DNA of 64,000 nucleotides, from the NCBI GenBank assembly GCA_903813345.2, contig CAIIXF020000003.1, positions 24,939,248 through 25,003,247 on the forward strand. Direction: 5' to 3'. Numbering within the stretch: position 1 is the stretch's first letter; each line of letters begins with the position of its first letter. A program made the translations under genes and the position numbers. This DNA comes from Owenia fusiformis. Lineage: Eukaryota; Annelida; Polychaeta; Sabellida; Oweniidae. This document shows, in pieces, positions 9,001-33,000 of the stretch. Under the pieces are notes generated by a model. The model saw nothing but the letters and a program-made list of their open reading frames with translations, did no database searches and was not told the DNA's origin.

Positions 9001-12000
9001 GATTTCTTATACTGTGCGATTTAACAGATTTCTTAGCAATCTCAAATGTAGCCTCAATTCCACTTTACATTCAAATGATAAATGAATGTAAGCTACTTAT
9101 ATGAGAGAAGCGAAAGATTGAATATCAAAGGTCGGATGTCAATGAAATTTTTCAAAGTTAGAATGAAGAAAGAGTTAAGGTCTTAGGAAGGGTAGATCAA
9201 ACGTACCTCATCATTCTCTTTAACCATAAAGCCTTCATCGTAAATCTGCCCACCCTGTTCAGCATAGAAACATGTGCAATCCAGCAGGACGCCACACTCC
9301 TGTCCAGAGGTCACTTCCTGTACAAATTCTTTATTGCAGCGCAACGCCTTTACAACACCAGTACACGTGTCAAATGCTGAAACCAAAATATTAAATCTTA
9401 AAAATGTTTTCATCAACATAATTGTTGCAGCATAAAACATTTACGACACCTGTACATATGTAATAAACATAAATAATATTTTATTGCAATCGTTGATATA
9501 CATACATGTATTTTTAGATTAATATTTTAAAATCTATGATTAAATAATTGTTTAAGATTCATAGCGGGTGACCCATTTAATGATTTGATTTAATCAGTCG
9601 CAATATATTTTGGATTTCTTGCCGTCATGTTTCTGGGGTCGTGAATTTGTATGATACAAGAATTTATCTGGATAATTTTTATCCTTTAGAATTATTGATC
9701 CCGATGAATATTTGGTGAATTGATACGATCCTAGAATGTTGGGGAAATCCCCAAGATTTATCCAAATTACATTGGAATTCAAATAAAAAAATTAATCCCC
9801 CTATGTAGACAAATTTTCTTTTGACACAAAACGTTGCTACCAACATTTTACACAATATATCCTTTCTTTCTGTGGTTCATATCAAAACATTGAATCTTTT
9901 ATAGAATTAATGATTTAAAATAATTGATAATGATTTATGTTTAAAAATAAATCAGTTTACACAAAAAACAAAAGTACAATGAATAATGTAATAATATTCT
10001 TTATTACAAATAATTTGTTTGCTTTATATTGATTTTAAATAGAAATAATGCATTTATTTATACATGTATCTGTGTATCTTTGCCAGACAAGCTTTGTCTG
10101 AGGTTAAAGCTACATTATTAATACACAGAGGGAAATAGGACACATATCCACTATGAGGCAGAATGTATTCACCTTGCTATTCATGTATGCAACAATCATA
10201 TATGTAAGGGCTCACTTACAGCCAAAATGCACGAAAGCAGATATCAAGAAATTGAAGGCCGATCTGATTGAAGCATTCGACAGCAAATTGCAAGTGATCA
10301 AGAATGATATCAAAGCCGAACTAGCCAATGAAATTGCCAGTCTTAATGAAGATCTCACAGAGGAAATCAATCAAAATGAAGTAAAAATGAATGCACTAAA
10401 GGAAGAACTAATTGTGCTGAAGACACAACTGACAAAAACAACAACTGAATTAAGTGATTGTGCATGTGAGAGGAAAAGACGTAAGTCCTATGTGATTTGT
10501 TTTATTCTCCATTAAGAGATTTATGTTAGTCTCAACATACTTCTCCGGAGTTAGTTACTGCAAGGGTGGGATATCACGTGGGGTTAAGTCTTGAGAGACC
10601 ATATGTGTTTGTTGAAGCTATATACATGTATTAGTTGCATATATAGGAAAAACATATTTTTAATTTCTTCGTTCACAAATTTTGTAGCAGCTCAAAAAGT
10701 ATTCAACCTTAAATGTAACATGCAGACTTTGTCAGACTTTGTCTATTTACAGAGAGGAGTTTAATCTACTATGCTGGCCCTTACATCTATACATTTGCTG
10801 ATGCAAAGGCATACTGTAAAAGTAAAGGTCATAAGATAGCCACGCCAGAGCAATTAGAAGCAGCTTTTGCCTTAGGGATGGAAGAATGTGCTTGGGGATG
10901 GTTAAAAGATGGCAGCGTTAGATTCCCAAAGCAGATGCCATATACAAATGGATGGTGTGGTACAAGAGGAATAAACAACCTTGAAAATCCTAGTCAATCA
11001 TCAGACAAGTTTGGAGTCTATTGTGCTACAAATGGAGGTCCAGACTAAAAATTTGAAAATGATGATGAATTCACAGAATAAATTCATGTGAACTTCAACG
11101 TAATTTTGTTCCTGTTCAATTTTAAGAAGTATGATTAAATCTGGTATATATACTCAACAGAGCATCCGAGCTCTAATCGGGAGGTTGTGGGTTCATTTCC
11201 CGCCGAAGTAGAGTGACTTTTTCACATCAGCCCTTAGCATAGAATTTGTTCCTATGTTTCAAATAAACTATTAAAATTCCTAGTCGGCCGGGAATGGTGC
11301 ATGGGAAAGACCATGTGACATCATGAATAGTGAGATTGACAACCTGGAAAGACAGGTAAACCTTACGAGGGTCCAGGAAACTGGGCATGTAAGTCATGGC
11401 AGAGACACCATATATGCAATTTTGATGTGGAAAAGCTGGTTGGCTCCTTAGCTCAACCGGTAGAGCATCCCAGATTTAATCGGGAGGTTGTGGGTTCATT
11501 TCCCGCCGAGGTAGAGTGACTTTTTCACATCAGCCCTTAGCATAGGATTTGTTCCTATGTTTCAAATAAATTCTCAACTAATTATATTATCTTCGCCCAA
11601 GTTGTAAAGCCAAAATATCCTGTCCAACAGTCATATCGCGAAAAGGACAATGATAGCACAGTTATTCAAAACTAGAAAACAGCAACTCCACGGATTAGCA
11701 AATCCCATGGAACAAAACATATTTTATAAAATAACTCACTATCTTGTACACTGCATGATAGAAATAGCCAGAAAATAGTAGAGTAGTATTGTCTCATTTT
11801 ATCAAAATCTAAAACCATGATGTGACATGATGCCATTTCATATACAGTAAGTTTTTAATTTGATGGCCGTTTTAATTTGACAGATTTGGCAGATTGATGA
11901 CTGCCAAATTAAGTCTTTGCCAATTTTTTTAATAAATCCAGGATTAAATTCTTTCAGCAGAGGTCTTCTGACCATAAAGATTTAAGGTGTTTTGTGAAAG

Positions 12001-30000: not shown

Positions 30001-33000
30001 GTGCATGGGGATGGCTTGAAGATGGAAGCATAAGATACCCAATGCAGATGCCATATACAAATAGATGGTGTGGTCAAGGAGGAGTAAACACTGATCTGAA
30101 TCATAATCCATCAGACAAGTTTGGAGTCTATTGTGTTACAAACGGAGGTCCAGATTAAAATTTTGAAAATGTTGATGAAATTTGTCAGAACAAATTCATA
30201 TGAAACTCAGTGTAACTCTTTGCCATTTGAATTTAAAGAAACTATGATTATACAATTAAGAAAGCCAAAATAAGCTGTGAACAATAAGGACTATGACTAG
30301 AAAACAGTAACTCTGCCGAGAAGCAAATCTCACCGATCAAAATATATTTTATAAACTACTCGTCATTTTGGACATTACATGATAAAAATGAGCTAATAAC
30401 CAGAAAATAGTAGAGTTATATTATATGATTTTCCATTTTGAATTAAGCATTAGCACATAAAATCTGAACCAAATGTTATAGATGGTATTTAAGAAATTGA
30501 AATATATATTTTTATGAATAAGGCGGCCATTTTGAATTCAGCAGTCATTTTGCTTTCCTTCTTGAGCAGATCATGTCAATATGGCATCAGCATATAAAAT
30601 TCAAACTTATCAGTCAAATATGTGAGTTACCAAAGATAACATTTTGAACAAAAAATGGCAGCAATTTTGAATTATGTGGTCATATTGGAAATTCATTCTT
30701 GAGCAGAGGTCCTTTTCCCCGTGACATTAGCCTATAAAATTAACGTCAAATCCTATTACTGGTATTTTACCATGTTGAAATGGACAGTCATACCATTGTC
30801 TATCGCCATGAAATGCAATGAAATACCATGGTCATACTGCGATTGTTATTTGGCAGATCCATTGCATTACAGGTCAACATCACATTTTAACATCGAGTTT
30901 TCAATTGAAAAAAGCATTTTGCAGATTTCATGGTCAGAGAATTTCAACCATGATATCTCTGCATTTGTTGCTTTTTAACCACGTATTGTAATAGTGTGAA
31001 AAAGCAGATTTTCAATGAAAAACACAATATTAATAAAGTGCTGTTGACCATGTAATGCAATAGTGCCATTTAACAATCAAGGTAATATGGCCAATTAATA
31101 TGTAATTTTGTATCTAAAATATACCACCATTTCAGTATTCCATCATCAAATACCATCATTTACAGCGATATCATGATCAAGAATTTCGACCATGAAAAGC
31201 AATCAAATGCAATGGTGTCGTTTAAAGATCATGGTATACAATGATGGGTATGGTATACCATGGTCAATTAACATGGAATTTTGCATTGAAAAAATGAAAC
31301 CATTTCACAGTATTTAATGCCAGCCCAGTTTGATGGGGGTGTAACACTGGGTAAAATCTCAACTTACAATAATCGCCTGATTCCGTTGCAGTGTAGTTGT
31401 ACTTAGGGAGATCATTGGTTGGAGGTAGGCCTAATTTTTGGAGTTCATTTATAGCATGCACATCTAGGTTCAACTGGTCGTCTACACCACTCCCACTTCC
31501 TTGAGATTTCAACTATAAACAAATATGAAACATACTTTTAGTATATCACTGGTGGATTCAACAAGCCTATGTGGACTCAGTGTTCCTATTTTGTATTTTG
31601 GTTAACGGCATATTTAGCGAGCAATACCTTTTAAGTATACTCCATATTTTTATGTATTTTTCATGCAAAGAGCAGCAAACCCTTCCTTGGAGCCCTGTGT
31701 TATTTTATGTGCACAGATCACACTACTATACCTTGCATTTGGTGTTCATGAGCAACCCATTTGGCTTATTAGTAATGATTATGTATTTGTTTTTATTTGT
31801 CTGTTCCTTATGAATGGTTTATCGGTTGAAAATTAGATGCTAGTAGGGCACTTTCAAAAATATATTAAACAATTCAATTAGACAAACAAAGTATCTTATG
31901 CATTTCTAGGTGTTAGGTATAGTAGTGTGAGATATAGAAGTTCAAAACACCAAGGGCTGAACAATGGTGGTAACTTTGGCTCTGTCACTGAGCCATAGAG
32001 TGTGGTAACGTTTTCAGAATAAAAAATGATTCCCGACATTTCCAGGTGCTGGGAAAATGAATGCATTTCCCTGACATTTCCAGGTGCTGGGAAAATGAAC
32101 ACATTTCCCTGACATTTTCAGGGCCATAGGAGGCATGTGACATATCTGACACATCTTTGTGAACACTCTCCAAGGAAGAGGTGAATGTGTTACTGACATT
32201 ACAGCTTGCATATCGCATTTGTGATACCATAACCATCCTTAATTACATAAATCTTTTCTATTGAGTAGCTATTGTTGTTCAAATCAAATAACATTTGTTA
32301 TTGCATCAAGGATCATTCAAGTGTTGAAATAAAATCTATTATAGAAGGTTGTAGGTACTATCAAGAAATAAAAATAATATGTGGTAAACAAGACACACAA
32401 TATCTTTAAATAGTTACGGATGATAGCTGCATAATAGTTAAGATTAATACCTTTTATAAACATTTCATGAACTTTGTATCAAAACAAGACAATAAATAAT
32501 AACAAGACATTAACATACAAAATGTCACCATTTGCTATTTGTTACAGACACCGACCGCTGAACACTGAACACCAACCGCCGAACACAAAAAGTTGGAGAA
32601 TATAACAATTTGTCACCATTTCTGGTGGTACATACGAAAAGACATTAATTACATAACCATTGATACTGTAATTAAATATTACTTACAATAGCTTCTTGTT
32701 TTGCTTTTTTGTAACCTTCCATATCAATCTCCCGATTTTTCTCTTCCATCATGAGCTGGGTAAGGTCAATTGGAAAACCATAGGTGTCATAAAGTCTCCA
32801 CGCAATATCACCTGGTAATACCTGACCCTCACCAAGCTTTTCAATGGTACGTTCAAGCAATCTACGACCCCTATTGAGTGTTTTTAAAAATTGGGCCTCC
32901 TCTTCGTTGATAATACTTTTAACCTGAAAAGCCATGAACATGCACAAACTATGGTTTAATTGTTCAAAAGTTTTCATCATAATTAAGGAATAATAGATTA

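What the first reader, a model, noticed from the sequence alone, without database searches (positions are those of the whole stretch)
9377..31367. Tandem Link-domain gene array nested antisense in one intron of alanyl-tRNA synthetase
AARS exons 9 and 10 (31368-31512 and 9207-9376) join in phase across 22 kb. Between them lie 8 first exons and 7 Link exons of a secreted protein family on the opposite strand. A whole lineage-specific family expanding inside a housekeeping intron is unusual. It could create antisense overlap with AARS pre-mRNA or impose co-regulation.
Basis: partly seen in the sequence, partly recalled or inferred. Interest (0 to 1): 0.85.

Follow-up and report, generated by a model that had tools for sequence, protein, structure and literature searches.

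The report
Link-gene array straddling an AARS gene
In this animal genome an essential protein-synthesis gene has a tandem family of probably secreted Link-domain genes running the opposite way through one of its introns, and the same family continues just past its end, which is an unusual arrangement of an otherwise familiar kind.

Summary
Cytosolic AARS is one intact gene model: 20 coding exons, 966 aa, one open frame, with a 21,991-bp intron 9 at exactly 9377-31367. That intron holds 8 first exons and 7 Link exons, all on the + strand, opposite to AARS. The interpretation needs correcting: the family is not confined to the intron. Four more copies (block D) lie on the same strand past the AARS stop codon, tail-to-tail, about 1.3 kb away, so AARS exons 10-20 sit inside one 73-kb, 11-Link-exon array. 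The 5' ends of the two blocks form separate clades (100/100), but some Link exons are mosaics of both: I6 matches D3 without mismatch over a 53-base acceptor tract, and D4 switches to I3-like sequence. I infer gene conversion across essential AARS exons. Copies range from open (I1, I2, I7, D2, D4) to damaged (I3, D3, I5x). Opposite-strand nested genes are common in animals (PMC8527503, PMC12274878). No expression data or related genomes were available, so antisense effects, co-regulation and dating are untested. Verdict: real, mostly ordinary in kind, with an interesting split-array twist.

The parts
9377..31367 (-). AARS intron 9 (21,991 bp), host of block I of the Link array
   Evidence: GT..AG borders and in-phase join
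31368..31512 (-). AARS coding exon 9
9207..9376 (-). AARS coding exon 10
32687..38609 (-). AARS coding exons 8 to 1 (32687-32923, 33886-34033, 34658-34803, 35072-35216, 36258-36449, 37010-37155, 37914-38102, 38466-38609)
   Evidence: PF01411 matches
5878..7098 (-). AARS coding exons 11 to 13 (6951-7098, 6348-6451, 5878-6018); exons 14-20 lie left of the window down to -13799
   Evidence: PF02272 match at C3:24925466-24925618
10153..10480 (+). I1 first exon: signal-peptide-like start and coiled-coil-like stretch
10753..11048 (+). I1 Link exon, open, four Cys
12421..13207 (+). I2 first exon (longest coiled-coil-like stretch in the intron)
13501..13793 (+). I2 Link exon, open, four Cys
17187..17762 (+). 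I3 first exon, two frameshifts, by eye at runs of A (pseudogene or assembly error)
17975..18267 (+). I3 Link exon, open, four Cys
18635..22063 (+). Three 1,143-bp tandem units (2-3 differences between units), each with upstream sequence and a first exon: I4a (19263), I4b (20406), I4c (21549)
22464..22756 (+). I4 Link exon; second Cys replaced by Ser
27099..27516 (+). I5 first exon
27769..28019 (+). I5x Link exon, truncated before the fourth Cys
28043..28335 (+). I6 Link exon; acceptor tract D3-like, body I4/I7-like (mosaic)
29172..29613 (+). I7 first exon with a Cys-rich stretch from 18-bp repeats
29866..30158 (+). I7 Link exon; second Cys replaced by Ser

Best explanation
This is a birth-and-death tandem array of small two-exon genes for probably secreted proteins: exon 1 encodes a signal-peptide-like start and a coiled-coil-like stretch, exon 2 a Link domain. 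It is split into two same-strand blocks by the 3' half of the essential AARS gene. Block I (8 first exons, 7 Link exons) lies antisense in AARS intron 9; block D (4 genes) lies just past the AARS 3' end, convergent with it. Each block grew by local tandem duplication with its own type of 5' end (inferred). Sequence has also passed between the blocks by gene conversion (inferred), the form of exchange that does not delete or duplicate AARS exons 10-20. AARS removes its 22-kb intron by ordinary splicing (inferred from intact exons and frame). The Link proteins most likely work as secreted oligomeric sugar- or matrix-binding proteins (inferred from domains). No coupling with AARS needs to be assumed.
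For: AARS intact and in frame. 11 Link exons and 12 first exons, all +, in two blocks. 5' ends of the blocks separate at 100/100; a 346-bp block-I query (upstream DNA plus 66 bases of exon 1) matched only inside intron 9, 7 of 7 matches listed. Mosaic copies: I6 has 0 of 53 mismatches to D3 over the acceptor tract, against 19-23 to the other six intron-9 copies, 4 to D1 and to D2, 18 to D4, then 4 of 216 to I4; D4 upstream is 90.7% identical to D3 over 733 bp, but its exon-1 end 90.6% to I5 over 212 bp and its Link exon closest to I3. Exact D-I matches of 96, 76 and 65 bp, against at most 44 between block D and a 22-kb right flank. Permutation test 0 of 2000 for 5 of 24 D-I pairs in the Link exon. 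dN/dS below 1 in 45 of 45 pairs of array copies.
Against: The exon-1 permutation test is not significant (best 79 of 2000 before correction for 24 pairs), and the tree of exon-1 ends leaves D4 unresolved. The AU test does not reject block I as one clade (p 0.053) or block D (p 0.127) on Link exons. Constraint that varies along the exon can mimic conversion. Mosaics might partly date from the founding copies. Coiled coil and secretion were judged by eye and weak sub-cut-off Pfam hits, not by a dedicated predictor. The truncated I5x also shows dN/dS below 1, so that measure does not prove present function. No RNA evidence.
Confidence: 0.78

Rival explanations
1. Assembly artefact: the Link array or the left AARS exons were misjoined.
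For: Near-identical 1,143-bp units (2-3 differences) and two frameshifts at A runs in I3 are the kind of place where assemblies fail.
Against: No N in the 110 kb examined; AARS exons are collinear on both sides and give one full-length frame; no second cytosolic copy of the left exons seen.
Confidence: 0.04
2. The intron block is mostly a graveyard of non-expressed copies carried passively in a large intron.
For: I3 frameshifted, I5x truncated, I4 first exons with a 6-bp insertion at the donor (read by eye: only the GTACAT site keeps the frame; the GTAAGT site gives TAG at the junction), Cys2 lost in I4, I6, I7.
Against: I1, I2 and I7 have open first and Link exons with consensus donors in matching phase; dN/dS 0.10-0.76 among array copies, though this includes the truncated I5x.
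Confidence: 0.2
3. Functional coupling: AARS and the nested Link genes regulate each other by antisense transcription or polymerase interference.
For: Geometry forces overlap of the transcription units; interference and induction between nested and host genes are documented elsewhere (PMC13309782 abstract; PMC12274878 passages).
Against: Nothing in the sequence tests it; block D, outside the AARS coding span, is also kept.
Confidence: 0.1
4. The intron block works as one unit with alternative first exons and alternative Link exons spliced in combinations.
For: Three near-identical first exons before one Link exon (I4a-c), one first exon before two Link exons (I5, I5x/I6); consensus donors are phase 1 and Link acceptors compatible.
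Against: Phase sharing is expected from duplication. AATAAA or ATTAAA lies within 400 nt after the stop in 5 of 6 untruncated intron Link exons (all but I7; 2 of 4 in block D), which fits separate genes, but no control was run and the DNA is A+T-rich.
Confidence: 0.1

Closest known systems
Opposite-strand nested intronic genes of animals
   Same: Whole genes inside a single intron of an unrelated host, opposite strand; hundreds per animal genome (567 opposite nested pairs in C. elegans, PMC12274878; 2357 nested intronic genes of either strand in 1654 hosts in Hormiphora, PMC8527503; passages seen).
   Different: Here about six units of a tandem family are nested at once, and the array continues past the host's 3' end with apparent sequence exchange between the two parts.
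Tandem families inside one host intron: keratin-associated KRTAP10 genes within TSPEAR (recalled; one search listed no paper holding all four search terms); microRNA cluster in Sfmbt2 intron 10 (PMC3212979, search listing only)
   Same: Local expansion of a family inside a host intron.
   Different: Other gene kinds; whether those clusters exchange sequence with copies beyond the host was not examined.
Link-domain (PF00193) proteins: aggrecan, TSG-6, LYVE-1, CD44
   Same: Link exon matches Pfam Xlink above cut-off; best solved relatives by sequence are aggrecan and TSG-6.
   Different: Two-exon gene with a coiled-coil-like first exon and a single C-terminal Link domain; array copies match the model from position 11 and five of 11 lack one of the four Cys.
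Expanded C1q-domain proteins of bivalves (PMC6835236, search listing only)
   Same: Secreted, lectin-like, expanded by tandem duplication.
   Different: Different domain; an analogy only. The species here was not identified.

Membership tests
Opposite-strand nested intronic gene | Gene lies wholly within one intron of another gene | tested here: met
   Block I coding exons, 10153-30158, lie inside 9377-31367. Block D does not.
Opposite-strand nested intronic gene | Opposite strand to host | tested here: met
   8 of 8 first exons and 7 of 7 Link exons in the intron are +, AARS is -.
Opposite-strand nested intronic gene | Host mRNA splices across the nested genes | not testable with these tools
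   In-phase join and intact frame only; no RNA data.
Opposite-strand nested intronic gene | Nested genes are transcribed | not testable with these tools
   No RNA data.
Link domain PF00193 | Profile match above curated cut-off (27 bits) | tested here: met
   11 of 11 array Link exons, 47.2-74.7 bits; D3 holds a TAG.
Link domain PF00193 | Four Cys of the two disulphides (pattern recalled) | tested here: inconclusive
   All four in 6 of 11 (D2, D3, D4, I1, I2, I3); Cys2 lost in I4, I6, I7, Cys3 in D1, Cys4 in truncated I5x.
Link domain PF00193 | Hyaluronan binding | not testable with these tools
   Alignment to TSG-6 only.
Secreted coiled-coil Link protein | Signal peptide and coiled coil in exon 1 | tested here: inconclusive
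   Hydrophobic start and heptad-like repeats by eye; weak sub-cut-off Pfam hits; no dedicated predictor run.
Cytosolic alanyl-tRNA synthetase | Full-length catalytic, editing and C-terminal regions in one frame | tested here: met
   966 aa; PDB matches over 1-454 and 754-966 to chains named cytoplasmic alanine-tRNA ligase, and over 513-754 to another alanyl-tRNA synthetase (2zze); PF01411 and PF02272 exon matches. PF07973 gave 3 matches, none at this locus; by the exon model that region is cut by introns.

The most novel reading that the evidence does not exclude
The AARS locus hosts a diversity-generating array: two blocks of phase-compatible Link exons on either side of essential AARS exons exchange sequence by conversion, while selection against deletion of AARS exons 10-20 removes crossovers between blocks and so preserves both. 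The intron block may also splice its first and Link exons in combinations.
Probability: 0.12. Interest if true: 0.7.

Novelty: new member of a known kind. Interest (0 to 1): 0.42.

Why it matters
Direct repeats on both sides of essential exons are a natural test of how genomes tolerate arrays whose unequal crossover would be lethal. If conversion between the blocks is real, AARS exons 10-20 act as a marker that filters crossovers from non-crossovers, measurable in population data. For gene regulation, it is a clear case of a housekeeping transcription unit running antisense through several other genes.

Tried and rejected
A second AARS locus or misjoin: searched with PF01411, PF02272 and PF07973. 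Only the C3 gene and a diverged C4 gene gave PF01411 matches; rejected as unlikely.

Single origin of each block from Link-exon trees: D4 groups with I3 (86/89), but the AU test leaves each one-block clade unrejected (p 0.053 and 0.127). The tree of exon-1 ends leaves D4 unresolved. The exon-1 conversion test was not significant.

Which block is ancestral: not decided. Synonymous sites against the two C1 copies are largely saturated (14 of 66 pairs gave no value, all with a C1 copy, and several others are very high), and no related genome is held.

Structured RNA: no Rfam match at gathering thresholds in the window. Species: searching papers for '498.3 Mb' and '498.26 Mb' gave two unrelated papers; the species stays unidentified.

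Literature searches for nested tandem families and for Link-domain expansions or Link lectins: I saw titles and the starts of abstracts of the rows listed (20 of 226, 10 of 19, 10 of 22) and noticed no description of this arrangement there. The library lacks most subscription papers.
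Full report
Setting. The window is C3:24939248-25003247 of a 498-Mb assembly of 525 contigs. Zero and negative coordinates below lie left of the window (C3 coordinate = 24939247 + n). The species was not identified.

Host gene. The minus-strand AARS model has 20 coding exons from 38609 to -13799, about 52.4 kb, translating to 966 aa with one terminal stop. It matches PDB chains named cytoplasmic alanine-tRNA ligase over residues 1-454 (4xem, E 9.6e-227) and 754-966 (5t5s, E 2.2e-57), and another alanyl-tRNA synthetase over 513-754 (2zze). Exons 9 and 10 join in phase with GT..AG borders. Introns are 268-3,651 bp except intron 9 (21,991 bp) and intron 13 (12,473 bp). PF01411 gave 15 matches, 9 at this gene and 6 at C4:5.33-5.37 Mb; PF02272 gave one, at this gene; PF07973 gave three, none here. 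No N lies in the 110 kb examined. A misjoin or second cytosolic locus is therefore unlikely.

The array. Xlink (PF00193) gave 21 matches genome-wide, 11 of them at this locus, all above cut-off. With the left flank fetched, the array has 12 first exons and 11 Link exons, all + strand. Block I, in AARS intron 9: first exons I1, I2, I3, I4a-c, I5, I7 and Link exons I1, I2, I3, I4, I5x, I6, I7. Block D, beyond the AARS stop: D1-D4, from -42661 to -15122. D4's stop lies 1.3 kb from the AARS stop, tail-to-tail.

Gene anatomy. Exon 1 has a hydrophobic, signal-peptide-like start and a coiled-coil-like stretch (by eye), ending with a phase-1 donor. Exon 2 carries the Link domain to the stop. The consensus join reads ...[13 protein letters not shown]... 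in I1 (read). The same two-exon plan can be read, by eye from open frames, at C1:35.67 Mb (two genes), C1:29.50 Mb and C4:8.50 Mb, so 11 of these 15 Link exons sit at AARS; the other 6 Xlink matches were not examined. The array copies match the model only from position 11 (11 of 11), as do the C1:35.67 Mb pair (from 10 or 11), while C1:29.50 and C4:8.50 match from 1 or 2.

State of the copies. I1, I2, I7, D2 and D4 have open exons. I3 exon 1 has two frameshifts, by eye at A runs; D3 has a frameshift and a TAG; I5x is truncated; D1 lacks Cys3; I4, I6 and I7 lack Cys2. The I4 first exons lie in three 1,143-bp units differing at 2-3 positions. They carry a 6-bp insertion at the donor, so only the weaker GTACAT site keeps the reading frame into the Link exon (read). 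dN/dS (NG86, Link exons, D3 excluded) is below 1 in 45 of 45 pairs of array copies and in 7 further pairs with a C1 copy, several of those saturated; the other 14 of 66 pairs, all with a C1 copy, gave no value. The set includes the truncated I5x, so it reflects past rather than proven present constraint.

Two kinds of 5' end, mixed bodies. A tree of 140 bp upstream plus 75 bp of exon 1 separates D from I at 100/100. A 346-bp block-I query (upstream DNA plus 66 bases of exon 1) matched only in intron 9, 7 of 7 matches listed. A 462-bp block-D upstream query matched itself and two other D copies over its full length; 38 further listed matches cover mainly positions 74-251, a dispersed repeat (1740 candidates, 40 scored). 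Yet Link exons mix: D4 pairs with I3 (86/89). D4 is 90.7% identical to D3 over 733 bp up to -16431, then 90.6% to I5 over 212 bp, where D1-D3 are 75-78%; a tree of exon-1 ends leaves D4 unresolved. I6 has 0 mismatches in 53 to D3 around its acceptor, against 19-23 for the other six intron-9 copies, 4 for D1 and D2 and 18 for D4, then 4 of 216 to I4. Exact D-I matches reach 96, 76 and 65 bp; block D and a 22-kb right flank share at most 44. A GENECONV-like permutation test on the Link exon gave 0 of 2000 for 5 of 24 D-I pairs; the same test on exon 1 was not significant (best 79 of 2000). I read this as gene conversion between the blocks. AU tests do not formally reject one clade per block on Link exons (p 0.053 and 0.127), and uneven constraint along the exon could mimic part of the signal.

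How it likely works. AARS splices out a long intron; the nested genes use their own promoters (inferred). Polymerases run both ways, so interference is possible. [quoted passage not shown] elegans (PMC12274878, passages). Nothing here tests it. A crossover between direct D and I repeats would delete or duplicate AARS exons 10-20, so conversion is the tolerated form of exchange (inference).

Novelty. Nested intronic genes are widespread in animals (PMC8527503, passages), and tandem families inside introns are known (KRTAP10 in TSPEAR, recalled). The unusual part is the array split by its host's essential 3' exons, with mosaic copies across the split. I rate it a new member of a known kind, of moderate interest.

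Noticed in passing
window 18635-22063: Three 1,143-bp tandem units, each with upstream sequence and a first exon, differ at only 2-3 positions and share one Link exon; recent triplication or assembly effect.
   Followed up: partly
window 1957-4356 (+): 800-aa open frame with a reverse transcriptase domain (RVT_1, E 7e-28) inside AARS intron 13.
   Followed up: partly
left of window, about -6341 to -6596 (AARS intron 13, just before exon 14): Tandem partial copies of the AARS exon 14 acceptor and exon start (YPDPVRVV...) precede the real exon; they could act as decoy acceptors.
   Followed up: no
L003:9097-9558: Block-D upstream DNA contains a dispersed repeat of about 180 bp with many matches across the genome.
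   Followed up: no
window 29263-29375: 18-bp repeats give I7 a Cys-rich stretch after the signal-like start; its length differs among copies.
   Followed up: no
window 52286-53797 (-) and 58639-60612 (-): Open frames matching galactose-3-O-sulfotransferase (E 1.7e-47) and copper amine oxidase (E 6.1e-76).
   Followed up: no
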